From positions 1,985,556 to 2,049,555 of the forward strand of contig NZ_BMKQ01000001.1 in NCBI RefSeq assembly GCF_014644415.1: 64,000 bases of DNA. The letters are read 5' to 3'. Shown here in pieces: positions 49,477-58,080 of the stretch. The notes under the pieces are model-generated. The model searched no databases, was not told the DNA's origin, and saw only the letters and a list, made by a program, of their open reading frames with translations. This DNA is from Marmoricola endophyticus (lineage in GTDB: Bacteria > Actinomycetota > Actinomycetes > Propionibacteriales > Nocardioidaceae). Each line of letters starts with the position of its first letter. The stretch's first letter is position 1. The position numbers were made by a program, and so were the translations under genes.

Positions 49477-50454
49477 CTACCCGAGCGAGGCCCGGTCGTG
49501 CGGCTCCAGCCACACAGCCGGGTCCGGGCCCTTGGGCACGATGCCGGTCGGGTTCACGTCCTTGTGCACGACGTAGTAGTGCTGCTTGATCTGCTCGAAG
49601 TCGGTGTTCTCGCCGAACTCCGGGATCGAGTAGAGGTCGCGCGCGTAGCCCCACAGCGCCGGCAGCTCGGTCAGCTTCTGCCGGTTGCACTTGAAGTGGC
49701 CGTGGTAGACCGCGTCGAAGCGCGCCAGCGTCGTGAACAGGCGTACGTCGGCCTCGGTGATCGCGTCGCCCATCAGGTAGCGGCGGTCGCTCAGCCGCTC
49801 CTCGAGCCAGTCCATCGCCGTCCACAGCCGGTCGTAGGCGTCCTCGTACGCCTCCTGGGTGCCGGCGAAGCCGCAGCGGTAGACGCCGTTGTTGACCTCG
49901 GTGAAGACCCGCTTCATCACGGTCTCCATCTCCTCGCGGACCTCGGCCGGCCACAGGTCGGGCGCGCCCTCCTTGTGGTGCTCGGTCCACTCGAAGAAGA
50001 GGTCGTGGGTGATCCACGGGAAGTCGTTGGTCACGACCGCCTTGGACGGCACGTCGACCATCGCCGGCACGGTGATGCCGCGGGGGTAGTCGGGGATCCG
50101 CTCGAAGTACGCCTGCTGCAGCCGCTCGTAGCCCAGCACCGGGTCCACCCCACCGGGGTCGAGGTCGAACGTCCAGCTCCGCTCGTCGTGGGTCGGACCC
50201 GGCATCCCGAGCGAGATGACGTCCTGGAGCCCGAGCAGCGCGCGCACGATGATCGCCCGGTTGGCCCACGGGCACGCCTTCGCCGCGACCAGCCGGTAGC
50301 GGCCCGGCTCGACCGGCCAGGTGGTGTGCTCCACGTCGGGTCCGGCGACGCCCTGGTGAGCCAGCGTGTCGCGCGACTTCCCGGGCTCGGCGGTGATCCG
50401 GTCGGGGATGTAGTTCATGTCGCGCTCGAACGAGCTCTTCTCGACGTAGGCCAT
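49477..50454 (-). CDS. Xi-class glutathione S-transferase-like reductase (YqjG/ECM4 family)
   Basis: 325 residues. The thioredoxin-like N-terminal half has VAAKACPWANRAIIVRALLGL, whose Cys is the catalytic residue in glutathionyl-hydroquinone reductases, then ITVPAMVDVPSKAVVTNDFPWITHDLFFEWTEHHKEGAPDLWP. The helical half has NNGVYRCGFAGTQEAYEDAYDRLWTAMDWLEERLSDRRYLMGDAITEADVRLF and YHGHFKCNRQKLTELPALWGYARDLY, both family hallmarks. It reduces S-thiolated hydroquinones. Since actinobacteria use mycothiol, that thiol is the probable cofactor. It is convergent with the SnoaL gene and divergent from the GH3 gene. Confidence 0.92.
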   Translation of the reverse strand: MAYVEKSSFERDMNYIPDRITAEPGKSRDTLAHQGVAGPDVEHTTWPVEPGRYRLVAAKACPWANRAIIVRALLGLQDVISLGMPGPTHDERSWTFDLDPGGVDPVLGYERLQQAYFERIPDYPRGITVPAMVDVPSKAVVTNDFPWITHDLFFEWTEHHKEGAPDLWPAEVREEMETVMKRVFTEVNNGVYRCGFAGTQEAYEDAYDRLWTAMDWLEERLSDRRYLMGDAITEADVRLFTTLARFDAVYHGHFKCNRQKLTELPALWGYARDLYSIPEFGENTDFEQIKQHYYVVHKDVNPTGIVPKGPDPAVWLEPHDRASLG

Positions 50455-51639: not shown

Positions 51640-52566
51640 TCAGCCGCCCCCGGCGGCCTCGATCAGCTCGGCCAGGTCGCCGGACAGCTCGACCGAGACC
51701 TCGCCGACGTCGTTGCGGCGCGAGAGCTGCTCGATGCCTGAGGGGCGCCACCAGTACAGCTCGGGAGAGACCGGGCCGGCGCCGTCGGAGAAGCCGAGCT
51801 CGGCCCAGCGCAGCAGACCGGAGAAGACCGTGGCCCAGGCGTCGTCGCCTCGCCACGGGTGGAACGCGACCTGGTTGCGGCAGGCGACCACGAAGAACGC
51901 TCCGCGCTCGGGGTCGATCGGGTCCCCGACGGCGTCGGCGATCGATCCCAGCTGCAGCGCGGTGGTCGCCGTGAACACCGAGTCCCCGAACACGCAGTGG
52001 AACGACGAGTCCTGGGCCGGCACCACCTCCGCCTCGTCGAACGTGATCTCGCGCAGGTTCTGTCGCGCCGCGTCGTAGAGCGGCCCGGCCGGCCCCAGCC
52101 GCGGGAAGACCTTGTCCGTCAGGTAGGCGACCGTGTCCGGCTGGTCGAGGCACAGCACCTCGACCAGGTCGTCGGCGACCTCGCGTGCGTAGGAGAACAG
52201 ACGCGGGTCGGCCCGGTCGCGTCCGACGAGGCGCGGGTAGACACGGCGGCGCAGCTCCTCGGGGACGATCGTGTCGAGCTCGCTGGGCTGACTCATGCGC
52301 GCGACGATCCGACGGACGTGGTCGGCGACGAGCCCGGGCCAGCGCCCGGCCTCCTCCTGGTGGCAGGTGGCCGCGAGGTTGGCGAGGCCGTACTGCGTGC
52401 CGGCGTCGTCCTCCACGTAGTCCGGGTGGAGGGACACCTCGATGCCGCGCTCCGCGAAGGTGGTCAGGACCAGACCGCGCAGGTGCGAGGCCTCCTCGGT
52501 GCTCAGGAAGGGGAAGGCGTCGTCGGGGCGACTGTCCGGCCGGGGCCGGCGGGAGAAGAGACCCAC
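51640..52566 (-). CDS. Conserved hypothetical protein at the end of the ATP-grasp/transglutaminase run
   Basis: About 308 residues from GTG 52566 (V-G-L-F-S-R-R). No membrane segment or signal. The N-terminal half has LHPDYVEDDAGTQYGLANLAATCHQEEAGRWPGLVADHVRRIVARM, faintly like the DUF1444/YtpQ group. The second half is mixed alpha-beta with YLTDKVFPRLGPAGPLYDAARQNLREITFDEAEVV, FHCVFGDSVFTATTALQL and CRNQVAFHPW. A C-terminal acidic segment follows. It starts 17 bases after the metallopeptidase stop, so it is in the same transcript. It may be a partner or substrate of that system. I do not recognise it with confidence. Confidence 0.65.
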   Translation of the reverse strand: MGLFSRRPRPDSRPDDAFPFLSTEEASHLRGLVLTTFAERGIEVSLHPDYVEDDAGTQYGLANLAATCHQEEAGRWPGLVADHVRRIVARMSQPSELDTIVPEELRRRVYPRLVGRDRADPRLFSYAREVADDLVEVLCLDQPDTVAYLTDKVFPRLGPAGPLYDAARQNLREITFDEAEVVPAQDSSFHCVFGDSVFTATTALQLGSIADAVGDPIDPERGAFFVVACRNQVAFHPWRGDDAWATVFSGLLRWAELGFSDGAGPVSPELYWWRPSGIEQLSRRNDVGEVSVELSGDLAELIEAAGGG

Positions 52567-52583
52567 CCCGACATCAGACCACG

Positions 52584-53600
52584 TCAGACCGCGTCTCGGG
52601 CGATCCGCGCTCTCGTCACCAGGGTCGAGACGAAGTCCAGCTTCGTCAGCACCGGCGCGGGGATGACGAACGGGTAGAGGTCGTCGTTGCCCATCGAGCG
52701 GTTGATCTGGTTCAGCGCCGTCGAGGTCGGCAGCCACACCCCGGAGACGAGGTCGCGGAAGCTGCGGAAGGCGGTCGGGTTCACCGCGGTCAGGCCGAAC
52801 TCGGCCGCGGTCTCGACAGTGTCGGAGATGTGCAGGAAGTGCGCCCAGGTCTCGGCGAAGTCCTCCCAGGGGTGCATGGTGGCGTACTCCGAGATGTACG
52901 ACTTCTTCCAGTCCGCGGGCGGGCCCTCGGAGTAGTGCCGCTTGATCTCGGCCTGGTAGTCGGCGGTCTCGTCGCCGAACAGCTCGCGCGCCTGCGCCAC
53001 GGTCTCGTCGTCGGTCACCAGCTGCCACTCGACGTAGTGCCCGACCTCGTGGCGGAAGTGGCCGAGCATCGTGCGGTACGGCTCGGCGAGCTTGGCGCGC
53101 ACCCGCTCGCGGTAGGCCGCGTCGGTCTCGGCCAGGTCGATCGTGATCACCCCGTCGGCGTGCCCGATCACCACGTTGTCGGTGGCCTCGGACATGCTGG
53201 AGATCAGGTCGAAGCACAACCCGTTCTCCGGGTCCTGCTTCTTGCTGCGCAGGTCCAGGCCGTGACCGTCGAGCTCGAAGACCAGGTGGCGCTTGGCCTC
53301 CTCGGCGCGGTGGTACTGCTCCAGCGCCATCGCGTCCTCGTCGTTGGGCCGCGTCCGGGTCAGCTCGCAGGAGAAGCAGTAGCCCGTCTCCGCCCGGGTC
53401 AGCCAGGTGCAGCCGGACAGCGTGAGGTTCCGGCAGACCCGCCACTCGCCCCCGTCGGCGTCGACGTAGCGACCCTCGTCGTCGACCGGGACGATCGCCC
53501 GCTCCTCGCGGGAGAACCCCAGCCGGGTGCCGCAGTGGATGCAGCGGGAGTTCTCGAAGTACAGCGCCGAGTCGCAGACCCGGCAGCGGAAGGCCTTCAT
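52584..53600 (-). CDS. Zinc-ribbon metallopeptidase (Peptidase_Mx-like)
   Basis: 338 residues. The N-terminal zinc ribbon has CRVCDSALYFENSRCIHCG, and two further Cys pairs follow (CRNLTLSGCTW, CFSCELTR). The peptidase domain carries GHFRHEVGHYVEWQLV, the zinc H-E-x-x-H, followed by RELFGDETADYQAEIKRHYSEGPPADWKKSYISEYATMHPWEDFAETWAHFLHISD; the E-D-F-A-E region supplies the third ligand. It is cytosolic (no signal). This family (PF15887) is often called putative zinc-binding metallopeptidase. Its position after the transglutaminase and ATP-grasp genes suggests it trims or removes the peptide tag made by them. 57 bases separate it from the transglutaminase. Confidence 0.88.
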   Translation of the reverse strand: MKAFRCRVCDSALYFENSRCIHCGTRLGFSREERAIVPVDDEGRYVDADGGEWRVCRNLTLSGCTWLTRAETGYCFSCELTRTRPNDEDAMALEQYHRAEEAKRHLVFELDGHGLDLRSKKQDPENGLCFDLISSMSEATDNVVIGHADGVITIDLAETDAAYRERVRAKLAEPYRTMLGHFRHEVGHYVEWQLVTDDETVAQARELFGDETADYQAEIKRHYSEGPPADWKKSYISEYATMHPWEDFAETWAHFLHISDTVETAAEFGLTAVNPTAFRSFRDLVSGVWLPTSTALNQINRSMGNDDLYPFVIPAPVLTKLDFVSTLVTRARIARDAV

Positions 53601-53657
53601 GCCGCGACCCTCTCACCCGACCCCTCCGGGTGAGCCAGTCGGCCTTGGCCCGGAGCC

Positions 53658-54542
53658 TCAGCCCGGGGCGACGTCGACCTCGACCTTCAGGCTCGAGGAC
53701 CTGGCCTCGGTGAAGATGATCCCGCGCACCGGCGGCACGTCGCCGTAGTCGCGGCCACAGGCGACCGTCACGTAGCGCTCGCCGGCGGGCTGGTCGTTCG
53801 TCGGGTCCAGCGCGAGCCAGTCGCCGCCGCCCTCCGAGCCGGGCAGCCAGACCTCCACCCACGCGTGGGACGCGTCGGCGCCGACGACGCGCTCCTTGCC
53901 CGGGGGTGGGGTGGTGGCGAGGTAGCCGGAGACGTACCTCGCCGCGAGGCCGTGCGCGCGCCAGCCGGCCAGGAACAGGTGCGCGAAGTCCTGGCAGACG
54001 CCGGCGCGCTCGGCCAGCACGTCGTCGAGCGTGCTGGTCACGGTCGTCGCGGTCTTGTCGTACGCGAAGTCCTCGTGGATGCGGTGCATCAGGTCGTACG
54101 ACGCCTCGCCGAGCGGTCGCCCGGGAGCGAGGGACGCGGCGGCGTACGACGCCGCACCCGCGTGGCGGGAGACGCGCGGCGACGGCAGCGCCAGCTCGAT
54201 CGCGCGCCAGGCGTCGGGCAGGTCGCGCCGCTCGGCCGGTCGGGCCCGCTCCCAGGGCACGGCGAGCACGGCGTCGTCGTGGACGCGGTCCTCGACCTCG
54301 ACGGTGCTGTCCGCACGGACGACGAGCTCGGTGTGCGGGGTGCGCACCTGGAAGAACGTCGTCTCGTTGCCGAAGTGGTCGACGTCGGGTGCCGCGTCGC
54401 CCGGCACCGGCGTGAGCGACAGCTCGTGGTCGAGCACCCGCTGGTACGGCAGCGACCGCGGCCTCAGGTGCAGGACACCGAGGCTGTCGGTCACCTCGTC
54501 GTCGTAGGTGTACGTCGTCCGGTGCCACAGGGCCCACCTCAT
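53658..54542 (-). CDS. Transglutaminase-like protein linked to ATP-grasp/alpha-E
   Basis: 294 residues from ATG 54542, overlapping the stop of the ATP-grasp gene (ATGA). The N-terminal beta domain (about 1-110: WALWHRTTYTYDDEVTDSLGVLHLRPR, VLDHELSLTPVPG, FFQVRTPHTELVV) is that of bacterial transglutaminase N domain. The core at about 155-250 has ERAGVCQDFAHLFLAGWRAHGLAARYVSGYL (catalytic Cys), ASHAWVEVWLPGS (His) and LALDPTND (Asp), a complete Cys-His-Asp triad. It is cytosolic. Members cleave or form amide bonds. The genetic link with the ATP-grasp/alpha-E protein is widespread. Confidence 0.93.
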   Translation of the reverse strand: MRWALWHRTTYTYDDEVTDSLGVLHLRPRSLPYQRVLDHELSLTPVPGDAAPDVDHFGNETTFFQVRTPHTELVVRADSTVEVEDRVHDDAVLAVPWERARPAERRDLPDAWRAIELALPSPRVSRHAGAASYAAASLAPGRPLGEASYDLMHRIHEDFAYDKTATTVTSTLDDVLAERAGVCQDFAHLFLAGWRAHGLAARYVSGYLATTPPPGKERVVGADASHAWVEVWLPGSEGGGDWLALDPTNDQPAGERYVTVACGRDYGDVPPVRGIIFTEARSSSLKVEVDVAPG

Positions 54543-57001
54543 GGTCCGGCCACCACGAGGTGCGGGAACGGTCGCGGCGCGGGCCCGGTGGAGAAGTGCA
54601 GCTCGGCGATCGCGTCGGCCGTCCGGGACAGCTGGGCGAGGACCTCGTCGAGCAGGTCGGCCAGGTGGGGTCGGTCGACGCCGCCGATGGCCACCAGGGT
54701 CGCGGTGTCGGTCTCCTCGACGCGGGTGAGCAGGTCGGCCACGAGCCGCTCGGGGCGGGTCGACCCCGTGGACCCGGCCAGCCCGGAGAGGTGGTCGGCC
54801 AGCGCGACCAGGGCGAACCGCAGCGACCGGGGGTTGGCACGGTCGAGGAGCAGCAGGTCGACGACGCTCGCCGGACGGACGTGGCCCCGGAAGCGACGCC
54901 GGTGCGTCACCGACGACTCGGTCGCGACCAGCACCGCGTCGAGGACCCGCCGGTCGACGTCGAGACCACGTCGTACGCACGTGGTGGCGCGCAGCAGGTG
55001 GGCCAGCTGCAGGGCCCGCTCCAGGCACCGTCCGGCCTCGATCACGTGCCACGTCTGGTCGCGCATCATGCTGGCGACGACGCCGTCGACCGACAGCACG
55101 CCGGTGAGCATCCGGCCGGCGCCCTCACCGAGCTGGTGCCGGTACGGCGAGTCCGTGACCAGCTCCGCAGCTCGGTCGAGCACCCCGAAGGCGCGCCAGA
55201 CGTCCGCCGAGAGCTGGTCGCGCACCGACTGTGCCGCCTCCCGCATCCCGGCGACGGCATGGGCGGCGGTGCCGACCCGGCGTCCGTCGAGCAGGACCGA
55301 GCGCAGGTCGGTCTCGGGTGAGGACCCTGGCCCGGGACCGGCCAGCCGGTGCACGGCTCCCCTCACGACGGCGAGCGCCTGGTCGCCCGCCGTGGCGGGG
55401 CGCGCCTCCTCGGCCAGCGTGGTCGCGGCGAGGGTCAGGCGCAGCGCCGCCTCGGCCCGGTCGACGTACCTCCCGAGCCAGAACATGTCCTCCAGCACGC
55501 GCGGCACGGTGACCTCCGGCGCCCGCAGCGTGGAGAGCGGGAGCACCTCCGCGAGGCCCTGGTCGGGGTCCTCCGGCGAGGCCTTGAGCACCCAGACGTC
55601 CTTGCTGGAGATCACGCTGCGGTCGTCGCCGAGCACCGAGGCCAGCCCACCGACCATCGGCCGGTAGGCCCCGCCGTGCTGGAGCGCGAAGGTCCGCAGG
55701 CTCACCGGGCGCGAGTGCACCGCGCCGCTCGGCCCGACCTGCGGGGACCAGGAGAGGTCGGCGGGCTCCTGGCCGACGTACCTGCCCGGGTCCGCGAGCA
55801 CCCGGTCGCGCAGGTCCTCGGCGGGCAGCCGCAGCGGCGCCGGGTCGTCGACGGTGCGCACCACGAGGTCGCTGCGGTCCAGCAGGGCGGCCCGCCCCTC
55901 CTCGGACCCGCCCCACCAGGTCGGCACCGACGCGAGCCTCAGGTCCTCGTCGAGCAGGTGCCGGCAGGCGGCCGGGAGGTACGGAAGCAGCGCCGGGCTC
56001 TCCAGCACCCCCGAGCCGAGCCCGTTGACGACCCGTACGCGACCACGGCGCACGACCTCCGTCAGCCCGGCGACGCCGAGGCGGGAGTCGCCACGCAGCT
56101 CCAAGGGGTCGGTCCACTCCGCGTCGACGCGGCGCAGGATGACGTCGACCCGCTCGAGGCTGCCGGCCGTGCGCAGGTGGACGTACCCGTCGCGGACCAC
56201 GAGGTCGGCGCCCTCGACCAGCGGGAAGCCCAGCGTCGAGGCCACGAACGCCTGGTCGTACGCCGTCTCCGAGCCGGCGCCCGTCGACAGGACCACCACG
56301 CGGGCGTCGGCGGTCTCGCCGCCCCCGGACTGCATCAGCACGGACCGCATCGCCGAGAAGAACGGCCCCAGCCGGTGCAGCCGCGCCTCACGGTAGAGCT
56401 CGGGCAGCACCCGCGAGACCACCCGACGGTTCTCCATCGCGAAGCCGATCCCGCTGGGCGCCTGGGTGCGGTCGCCGAGCGCGAGCCAGGCGCCGTCCGG
56501 CCCACGTCCGAGGTCGGTGCCGGTCACCAGCAGCGGGTGCGGGTCGACGTACGACCTCCGCGCGAGCGCACGGACGAAGCCGGGGTGGGTGTGCACCACC
56601 TCCGGGGGTACGACGCCCTCGGCCAGCAGCGTCTGCTCGCCGTAGAGGTCGACGAGGACCGCGTCGAGCAGCTCGGCGCGCTGGGCCAGCCCGACCTCCA
56701 GCGACGCCCAGTCGGCCGCGTCCAGGACCAGCGGCACGGGGTCCAGGCGCCAGGGCACCTCGCCCCGCCCGTGCGGCCGGACGTAGGTGACGCCGTCGTC
56801 GGCGAGGAACCGTGTGACGTCCCGGCCGACCCGGGCCAGGTCGTGCTCGGTGAGGCCGACGGCGACGGAGGCCAGCGCCTTCCAGGGCGCGCGGAGCCCC
56901 CCGTCCGGGCCGACCATCTCGTCCCACCGGGTCGGGGAGCCCGAGGGGTCGGACAGCTCGGGTTGGTTCACCCGATCGGCGTAGTCGCGCAGCGCGGTCA
57001 T
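54539..57001 (-). CDS. Circularly permuted ATP-grasp fused to alpha-E domain
   Basis: 820 residues. Residues about 1-480 match the circularly permuted ATP-grasp group: GFVRALARRSYVDPHPLLVTGTDLGRGPDG, GIGFAMENRRVVSRVLPELYREARL, VVVLSTGAGSETAYDQAFVASTLGFPLVEGADLVVRDG and VVNGLGSGVLESPALLPYLPAA, with many Arg and Asp residues for ATP. Residues about 497-820 are an alpha-E domain, starting PRVLEDMFWLGRYVDRAEAALRLTL, all helical. The family is predicted to ligate amino acids or peptides, with no experimental substrate known to me. Elsewhere the two halves are often separate genes. It overlaps the aminotransferase gene before it and the transglutaminase gene after it by 4 bases each, so the three act together. 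Confidence 0.92.
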   Translation of the reverse strand: MTALRDYADRVNQPELSDPSGSPTRWDEMVGPDGGLRAPWKALASVAVGLTEHDLARVGRDVTRFLADDGVTYVRPHGRGEVPWRLDPVPLVLDAADWASLEVGLAQRAELLDAVLVDLYGEQTLLAEGVVPPEVVHTHPGFVRALARRSYVDPHPLLVTGTDLGRGPDGAWLALGDRTQAPSGIGFAMENRRVVSRVLPELYREARLHRLGPFFSAMRSVLMQSGGGETADARVVVLSTGAGSETAYDQAFVASTLGFPLVEGADLVVRDGYVHLRTAGSLERVDVILRRVDAEWTDPLELRGDSRLGVAGLTEVVRRGRVRVVNGLGSGVLESPALLPYLPAACRHLLDEDLRLASVPTWWGGSEEGRAALLDRSDLVVRTVDDPAPLRLPAEDLRDRVLADPGRYVGQEPADLSWSPQVGPSGAVHSRPVSLRTFALQHGGAYRPMVGGLASVLGDDRSVISSKDVWVLKASPEDPDQGLAEVLPLSTLRAPEVTVPRVLEDMFWLGRYVDRAEAALRLTLAATTLAEEARPATAGDQALAVVRGAVHRLAGPGPGSSPETDLRSVLLDGRRVGTAAHAVAGMREAAQSVRDQLSADVWRAFGVLDRAAELVTDSPYRHQLGEGAGRMLTGVLSVDGVVASMMRDQTWHVIEAGRCLERALQLAHLLRATTCVRRGLDVDRRVLDAVLVATESSVTHRRRFRGHVRPASVVDLLLLDRANPRSLRFALVALADHLSGLAGSTGSTRPERLVADLLTRVEETDTATLVAIGGVDRPHLADLLDEVLAQLSRTADAIAELHFSTGPAPRPFPHLVVAGP

Positions 57002-58080
57002 GGCACGAACTTCGCGGCGACCTCCACCAGCCGGTCGTTGGCCTCGCGCTCGCCGATGCTGGCCCGTACCCCTTCACCGGCGAACGGGCGCAGCACGATG
57101 CCGGCCTCCTCGGCGGCGGTGACCAGGTCTGCGGTGCGCTCGCCGGTGGCCAGCCACACGAAGTTCGCGTGCGTCTCGGGCAGGTCCCAGCCCTGCGCGG
57201 TCAGCGCCTCGACCACCCGCTCCCGCTCGGTGACGATCGCCTCGACCCGCTCCATCAGCTCGGCCTCGTGCTCGAGCGCGGCCACGGCCGCGGCCTGCGC
57301 CGGCGCCGAGACCCCGAACGGCAGCGCGCACGCCCGGATCGCGGCGGCCACGTCCGGGTGCGCGACGGCGTAGCCGACCCGCAGGCCGGCCAGCCCGTAC
57401 GCCTTGGCGAAGGTCCGCATCACCACGACGTTCGGGTGCTCGGCCAGCAGCGCGACCCCGTCGACGGCGCCCTCGAGCCGGACGAACTCGCGGTACGCCT
57501 CGTCCACGACGACCAGCACCTCGCCCGGCACCCGCGCGAGGAAGTCCTCGACCTCCCCGTGGGTCAGCGCCGGGCCGGTCGGGTTGTTCGGCGTGCAGAG
57601 CACGACGACCTTCGTGCGCGGCTCGGCGGCCGCGGCCGCCATCGCGTCGAGGTCGTGCCTCCCGTCCGCGGTGAGCGGCACCTGGACGGGCTCGGCCGCA
57701 TTGATGCCGATCGCGATCGGGTACGCCTCGAAGCTGCGCCAGGCAGTGACCACCCGGTCCCCGGGGTCGCAGAAGGCCTGCAGCAGGTGGTAGAGCACCG
57801 CCACGCTGCCGGTCCCCGCCGCGAGCTGCTCGGTGGCGACGCCGAGCCGGGCGGCGAGCGCGGCGTACAGCGCGGTGCTGCCGGCGTCGGGGTAGCGGTT
57901 CATCCGCGCGGCCGCCCGCGCCACGGCCTCCTCGATGCCGGGCAGCGGCGGGAAGGGGTTCTCGTTGGAGGACAGCTTGTACGTCGTCATCCCCGGCCGG
58001 GGCGTCGGCGGCTTGCCCGCGGCGTACGCCGGGAGTGCACCGAGGGTGGCGCGCGGTCGTGGAGCCGGTGCGTCAGTCAC
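56998..58080 (-). CDS. Aminotransferase of the HisC2/Pat type
   Basis: 360 residues. The fold-type I aminotransferase motifs are LSSNENPFPPLPGIEEAV, AAGTGSVAVLYHLLQAFCDPGDRV, TAWRSFEAYPI, VVLCTPNNPTGPAL, VVDEAYREFV and RTFAKAYGLAGLRVGYAVA, whose Lys carries PLP. It closely follows M. tuberculosis Rv3772 (Pat/HisC2) over its whole length, which acts on aromatic 2-oxoacids such as phenylpyruvate. It overlaps the ATP-grasp gene by 4 bases and is the first gene of the run. It might supply an aromatic or other amino acid for the ligase (inference); a simple housekeeping role is equally possible. Confidence 0.92.
   Translation of the reverse strand: MTDAPAPRPRATLGALPAYAAGKPPTPRPGMTTYKLSSNENPFPPLPGIEEAVARAAARMNRYPDAGSTALYAALAARLGVATEQLAAGTGSVAVLYHLLQAFCDPGDRVVTAWRSFEAYPIAIGINAAEPVQVPLTADGRHDLDAMAAAAAEPRTKVVVLCTPNNPTGPALTHGEVEDFLARVPGEVLVVVDEAYREFVRLEGAVDGVALLAEHPNVVVMRTFAKAYGLAGLRVGYAVAHPDVAAAIRACALPFGVSAPAQAAAVAALEHEAELMERVEAIVTERERVVEALTAQGWDLPETHANFVWLATGERTADLVTAAEEAGIVLRPFAGEGVRASIGEREANDRLVEVAAKFVP

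What the first reader, a model, noticed from the sequence alone, without database searches (positions are those of the whole stretch)
51640..58080. Five-gene run built around an ATP-grasp/alpha-E fusion, transglutaminase and metallopeptidase
The sequence shows a Pat/HisC2-type aminotransferase, a circularly permuted ATP-grasp fused to an alpha-E domain, and a transglutaminase-like protein joined by ATGA overlaps, then a zinc-ribbon HExxH peptidase and an unknown 308-residue protein on the same strand. From family knowledge, ATP-grasp/alpha-E/transglutaminase sets are predicted to make or break peptide or isopeptide bonds and have no experimentally fixed substrate that I know of. The aminotransferase at the head, and a peptidase plus an unknown protein at the tail, suggest a complete cycle: supply an amino acid, ligate, then remove. 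The unknown protein is a candidate substrate or partner.
Basis: partly seen in the sequence, partly recalled or inferred. Interest (0 to 1): 0.75.

Follow-up and report, generated by a model that had tools for sequence, protein, structure and literature searches.

The report
Disabled ligase-like gene set, not five-gene cycle
Three of the five genes are a real, widely conserved bacterial gene set of unknown substrate, but its ligase-like protein seems to have lost the parts needed to use ATP, an intact version lies elsewhere in the genome, and the two outer genes look like mere neighbours.

Summary
The five genes are present as described. The five-part cycle is not supported. Only the fusion, the transglutaminase and the HExxH peptidase form a conserved set: in 32 loci of relatives (about 20 kb each) the transglutaminase follows the fusion in 32 and the peptidase is present in 28, but the aminotransferase in 4 and the 308-residue protein in 0. 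The aminotransferase has its own conserved neighbourhood, and the set lies inserted in it. Two further points. First, the fused ATP-grasp domain is probably dead: the E and N of the E-x-N motif and the glycine loop are gone in 94 of 94 fused proteins, while 27 of 27 unfused paralogues keep them. Second, every sampled genome with the fusion (29 of 29) or the peptidase (38 of 38) also has the intact unfused ATP-grasp; here it lies about 2.0 Mb away on the same contig, with its own alpha-E and transglutaminase. Many relatives carry a transglutaminase-DUF2126 'putative amidoligase' just upstream of the fusion; this genome has none. The set is known in kind; I found no report of the pseudo-ligase reading, but the key 2009 paper was not available.

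The parts
54539..57001 (-). Fusion of a circularly permuted ATP-grasp domain (residues about 90-456, predicted inactive) to Alpha-E (residues 500-803)
   Evidence: Pfam; G176 and R178 stand for the E and N of E-x-N, R382 for the lysine, glycine loop deleted
53658..54542 (-). Transglutaminase-like protein with intact C183-H226-D246
   Evidence: triad kept in 86 of 86 aligned sequences (this one, 75 from named loci, 10 from relatives); next to the fusion in 32 of 32 loci
52584..53600 (-). Zinc-ribbon HExxH peptidase (Peptidase_Mx, PF15887)
   Evidence: HE-x-GH in 28 of 28 aligned; near the fusion in 28 of 32 loci
56998..58080 (-). Pat/HisC2-type aminotransferase: resident neighbour, not part of the set
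51640..52566 (-). 308-aa protein of unknown family: neighbour, not conserved with the set
56998..57001 (-). ATGA junction AT/fusion: in G011 a transglutaminase-DUF2126 gene (ORF of 1107 codons) lies between the two genes
49477..50454 (-). Glutathione S-transferase-like gene that stands next to AT in several relatives without the set

Best explanation
The core at 52584-57001 is the accessory half of a two-locus amide-bond-forming system. The working ATP-dependent ligase would be the unfused canonical ATP-grasp of the locus at G000:C1:20117-23434 (ATP-grasp, alpha-E, transglutaminase). The fusion is a pseudo-ATP-grasp: its domain keeps part of the conserved site but not the E-x-N, lysine and glycine-loop residues, so it more likely binds the substrate or product, or the canonical enzyme, and presents it to its own alpha-E domain and to the transglutaminase, whose start overlaps its stop. 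The transglutaminase (intact Cys-His-Asp) makes or cuts an isopeptide or amide bond, and the zinc peptidase trims or removes the product. Shown: gene content, residue loss, co-occurrence, synteny. Inferred: physical partnership, direction of each reaction, substrate. AT and the 308-aa protein are neighbours: the set sits between AT and the GST-like gene that adjoins AT in several relatives, and the AT-fusion ATGA junction most simply arose because the transglutaminase-DUF2126 gene that stands there in a relative is missing.
For: Residues: E of E-x-N 0 of 94 fused, N 0 of 94, loop motif [SA]GGxG 0 of 94, N-S-S 0 of 94 (94 rows are 93 distinct contigs, L096 being G012), against E, N, lysine, loop glycines and N-S-S in 27 of 27 canonical. 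Lysine kept in 47 of 94 fused, arginine in 42. 14 canonical ATP-grasps form one clan, FastTree support 1.0, apart from 93 fused. Co-occurrence: fusion implies canonical in 14 of 14 of the relatives and 18 of 18 of the class sample (29 distinct genomes); peptidase implies canonical in 18 of 18 and 23 of 23 (38 distinct), 12 of them without the fusion. Canonical and fused genes lie in one locus of at most 22.6 kb in 10 of 80 named loci. Window genome's canonical locus. Insertion: of 10 loci with AT but no set beside it, AT and the GST-like gene are 66-254 bases apart in 5 and 2.3-4.5 kb apart in 2; the set lies between AT and GST in the window, G011 and L093 and in L198, L200, L202. DUF2126 absent from this genome. 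An ATP-grasp of the Y. bercovieri Anbu operon is reported to release phosphate from ATP (PMC6376114, abstract and passages); that it is of the canonical, unfused type follows from its four-gene operon, not from a test here.
Against: No structure or biochemistry of any fused protein; that E-x-N, lysine and glycine loop bind metal and ATP is recalled from the ATP-grasp superfamily, not tested. A basic residue (K or R) stays at the lysine position in 89 of 94 fused proteins, which could mean some anion or nucleotide binding. Three of 14 relatives with the fusion lack the peptidase (G040, G049, G057). Co-occurrence counts are not corrected for kinship, and fused, canonical and other matches were sorted by hand from score and coverage. 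In Y. bercovieri pull-downs with Anbu as bait showed no specific interaction with the other operon proteins (PMC6376114).
Confidence: 0.6

Rival explanations
1. Five-part cycle of the first reader: AT supplies an amino acid, the fusion ligates it, transglutaminase and peptidase process, the 308-aa protein is the substrate.
For: Same strand, tight spacing and ATGA coupling in this one genome. AT lies in the same region in 4 of 32 loci of relatives and in L093 and L094.
Against: AT abuts the fusion only here (1 of 35 loci with about 1.5 kb upstream). The 308-aa protein is near the fusion in 0 of 32 wide loci and 0 of 80 named loci; its homologues lie elsewhere, e.g. 1.6 Mb away in G041. AT belongs to another conserved block.
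Confidence: 0.04
2. The fused ATP-grasp is still an active ligase that uses a rearranged ATP site.
For: Much of the domain is conserved with the canonical one (R290, R291, D293, D298, N326, K467, D468, W470 and others); K or R at the lysine position in 89 of 94; the CP_ATPgrasp_2 model covers it whole.
Against: E and N of E-x-N, glycine loop and N-S-S lost in 94 of 94.
Confidence: 0.2
3. The ligase partner of the set is the DUF2126 protein, not the canonical ATP-grasp; this genome has a decaying remnant.
For: Among 78 relatives DUF2126 is found in 9 genomes, all 9 with the fusion, and it lies upstream in 57 of 70 named loci with room.
Against: 14 of 32 loci of relatives lack it, yet all 14 keep fusion and transglutaminase and 11 of 14 the peptidase, with the transglutaminase triad intact wherever aligned; the canonical ATP-grasp is present in all 29 sampled fusion genomes.
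Confidence: 0.2

Closest known systems
ATP-grasp/alpha-E/transglutaminase amidoligase systems of Iyer et al. 2009 (10.1039/b917682a; not held; known here only from papers that cite it: PMC5666114, PMC6376114, PMC3597751; COG numbers recalled)
   Same: Same three domain families; predicted peptide synthesis or tagging; no proven substrate
   Different: Here ATP-grasp and alpha-E are fused and the ATP-grasp looks inactive; a zinc peptidase is added; no DUF2126; the intact canonical genes are elsewhere in the genome. Whether the 2009 paper already treats fused or inactive forms I could not check
Anbu operon (Y. bercovieri, Hyphomicrobium, Pseudomonas)
   Same: ATP-grasp, alpha-E, transglutaminase plus a peptidase-like partner
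   Different: No proteasome-family match lies beside either locus: the two PF00227 matches of the genome lie together at C1:483249-484562, as one would expect of a 20S pair; the partner here is a HExxH zincin
Mycobacterial sets with the same genes, e.g. L101, L109, L117 (and, recalled, Rv2566-Rv2569c)
   Same: DUF2126 protein, fusion, transglutaminase and Peptidase_Mx together
   Different: In some the transglutaminase and peptidase are on the opposite strand; DUF2126 gene kept. PMC11081392 (passages) reports Rv2569c as a cell-wall serine protease; that it is the transglutaminase-like member is recalled

Membership tests
ATP-grasp/alpha-E/transglutaminase amidoligase set | All three domain families in one gene run | tested here: met
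   fusion followed by transglutaminase in 32 of 32 loci
ATP-grasp/alpha-E/transglutaminase amidoligase set | ATP-grasp with E-x-N, lysine and glycine loop | tested here: not met
   Met by the second locus of the genome (L001 row)
ATP-grasp/alpha-E/transglutaminase amidoligase set | Transglutaminase Cys-His-Asp | tested here: met
   C183, H226, D246; 86 of 86
ATP-grasp/alpha-E/transglutaminase amidoligase set | Peptide or amide product | not testable with these tools
   Needs biochemistry
DUF2126 (putative amidoligase) variant of the set | Transglutaminase-DUF2126 gene upstream of the fusion | tested here: not met
   No PF09899 match in the genome
Anbu operon | Anbu gene in the operon | tested here: inconclusive
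   The only PF00227 matches lie about 460 kb from the canonical locus; that PF00227 detects Anbu was not checked
Peptidase_Mx (PF15887) | Zinc ribbon plus HExxH domain over the curated cut-off | tested here: met
   (321.5 bits, cut-off 27)
HisC/Pat aminotransferase | NF002878 (PRK03321) over cut-off | tested here: met
   477.1 bits, cut-off 374

The most novel reading that the evidence does not exclude
Across many phyla, one ancient loss of the ATP site made a pseudo-ATP-grasp/alpha-E fusion that exists only in cells with the active paralogue, as a dedicated substrate- or product-handling partner; in Actinomycetes the two halves were split to distant loci and a zinc peptidase was recruited to the pathway.
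Probability: 0.5. Interest if true: 0.62.

Novelty: new variant of a known kind. Interest (0 to 1): 0.45.

Why it matters
These gene sets are widespread in bacteria, including mycobacteria, and I found no proven product. If the fused protein cannot use ATP, tests of it as a ligase will fail, and the ligase to assay is the unfused paralogue. The finding that fusion and peptidase occur only with the canonical ATP-grasp gives a short list of genes to delete together. Nitrogen limitation is a condition to try: in P. putida the genes annotated 'bacterial proteasome, beta subunit' and 'circularly permuted ATP-grasp type 2' rise by log2 4.44 and 3.99 on nitrate against ammonium (PMC8050072, passages), and these domains co-vary with urea-metabolism domains in marine metagenomes (PMC3597751, passages).

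Tried and rejected
Pfam on nine members of the 308-aa family gave nothing convincing (best E 0.1); its family stays unknown. PDB search with the peptidase gave no relative; with the fusion and canonical proteins the only sound match was 3n6x. The profile search did not reach glutathionylspermidine synthetases of known mechanism, so the E-x-N assignment rests on recall. Neighbours of the solo peptidase genes in relatives gave no functional lead. Paper searches: 'inactive ATP-grasp' 0 papers; COG2308/COG2307/COG4307/DUF2126, Rv2567-Rv2569c, Rv2409c-Rv2411c, circularly permuted ATP-grasp, ATP-grasp with alpha-E, transglutaminase and amidoligase, alpha-E domain with nitrogen (15 of 257 listed), Anbu (15 of 43 listed): in the listings and the passages read I saw no statement that the fused domain is inactive, but Iyer 2009, the most likely place, is not held. 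The rlo operon of P. aeruginosa (PMC12239564, passages) pairs an inactive transglutaminase with an ATP-grasp; set aside, since the paper likens that ATP-grasp to RimK and its peptidase to RimB.

Full report
Observation. Domain assignments are right. The window's organism is probably a Nocardioidaceae member: its genus-mate G012 has a contig of the same length as L096, a Propionibacteriales MAG, and the best named matches of the fusion are from Aeromicrobium and Nocardioides.

Which genes belong together. I searched 78 relatives with each of the five proteins, then read the loci. In 13 relatives with the fusion, the transglutaminase follows it in 13, the peptidase in 9 (one more contig ends too early), AT is near in 1 (G011) and the 308-aa protein in 0. 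A wider set of 32 loci of about 20 kb (20 of the 63 other family genomes with the fusion found, plus 12 of the 13 above): transglutaminase 32, peptidase 28, DUF2126 18, GST-like gene 7, AT 4, 308-aa protein 0. In 35 shorter loci (of the 64 genomes, this one included) the gene directly upstream of the fusion is the DUF2126 protein in 26, AT in 1 (this genome), neither in 8.

AT is a resident. In 10 loci where AT has no such set beside it, AT and the GST-like gene are 66-254 bases apart in 5, 2.3-4.5 kb apart in 2, and GST is not seen in 3 (in one AT lies at a contig end); a holin-like gene stands on the other side in 9 of 10 and a low-molecular-weight phosphatase-like gene in 8 of 10 (these two names are my labels, GST is). 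In the window the set, the 308-aa gene and a glycosyl hydrolase 3 gene lie between AT and GST. In G011 the order is AT, transglutaminase-DUF2126, fusion, transglutaminase, peptidase, GST. So the window most simply shows that arrangement minus the DUF2126 gene, and the ATGA coupling of AT to the fusion is a by-product. This order of events is inferred.

The ATP-grasp domain. Against 3n6x and the canonical paralogue of the same genome, P0002 lacks the E and N of the E-D-N motif (now G176 and R178), the lysine (R382), the glycine loop (deleted) and the N-S-S motif before S-K-D-x-W. In 94 fused proteins (80 named loci and 14 from this genome and its relatives, one contig counted twice) E is kept in 0 (one D), N in 0, the loop [SA]GGxG in 0, N-S-S in 0, lysine in 47 with arginine in 42. 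In 27 canonical proteins E, N, lysine, the loop glycines and N-S-S are kept in 27. By title the fused proteins come from Actinomycetes, Gammaproteobacteria, Acidobacteria, Planctomycetes, Bacteroidetes and others. The 14 canonical sequences then in hand form one clan with FastTree support 1.0. That these residues bind Mg-ATP is recalled from the ATP-grasp superfamily. Kept in at least 95% of the fused as in all canonical: R290, R291, D293, D298, N326, K467, D468, W470 and others.

Two loci, one system. The genome has a second locus, C1:20117-23434, with an intact canonical ATP-grasp, a separate alpha-E and a transglutaminase, about 2.0 Mb from the window's set along contig C1. Among 78 relatives 33 have a canonical ATP-grasp, 18 the peptidase, 14 the fusion; all 18 and all 14 fall within the 33. 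Among 98 genomes of the class 37, 23 and 18; all 23 within the 37, all 18 within the 23. Three genomes are in both samples. In the relatives 3 fusion genomes lack the peptidase, so the inner nesting is not strict. Fisher p for peptidase with canonical is 4.9e-9 and 4.2e-13, without correction for kinship; for the 308-aa protein 0.61 and for AT 1. In 10 of 80 named loci canonical ATP-grasp and alpha-E lie in the same locus as the fusion.

DUF2126. PF09899 ('Putative amidoligase enzyme') occurs in 9 of 78 relatives, each with the fusion, and not in this genome. 14 of 32 loci lack it; all 14 keep fusion and transglutaminase, 11 the peptidase. Its absence is thus not peculiar to this genome.

Mechanism. 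I take the canonical ATP-grasp as the ligase, the fusion as an inactive partner, transglutaminase and peptidase as intact processing enzymes. From print: the Y. bercovieri Anbu-operon ATP-grasp releases phosphate from ATP, and no specific interaction with Anbu was found by pull-down (PMC6376114, abstract and passages); Anbu operons and their proposed peptide-synthesis role (PMC5666114, passages); nitrogen response (PMC8050072 and PMC3597751, passages). Substrate and product remain unknown.

Verdict. The five-part cycle falls. What remains is a known kind of gene set in a DUF2126-less form, with a widespread pseudo-ATP-grasp that occurs only beside an intact paralogue in the genomes sampled. 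I did not find this reported in the searches listed, with the key 2009 paper unread.

Noticed in passing
G000:C1:2663929-2664804: A diverged paralogue (27% identical) of the 308-aa protein in the same genome; matches are scattered over 21 of 78 relatives and nine members scanned have no sound Pfam match.
   Followed up: partly
Class sample, e.g. G115:C14:280623-282017: A third group of CP ATP-grasp matches (12 of 98 genomes, E about 1e-89 to 1e-105) in open frames of roughly 860-980 aa that match only the ATP-grasp part.
   Followed up: no
L101, L109, L112, L115, L117, L124: In several mycobacteria the transglutaminase and peptidase of the set are on the opposite strand to the fusion.
   Followed up: no
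L067-L072: In relatives without the fusion the peptidase gene stands apart from the canonical locus, in a region shared among them beside glycosyltransferase- and deacetylase-like genes (labels mine).
   Followed up: partly
53601-53657: The 57-base gap between transglutaminase and peptidase holds the inverted repeat CTCCGGG/CCCGGAG without a T run (seen by eye).
   Followed up: no
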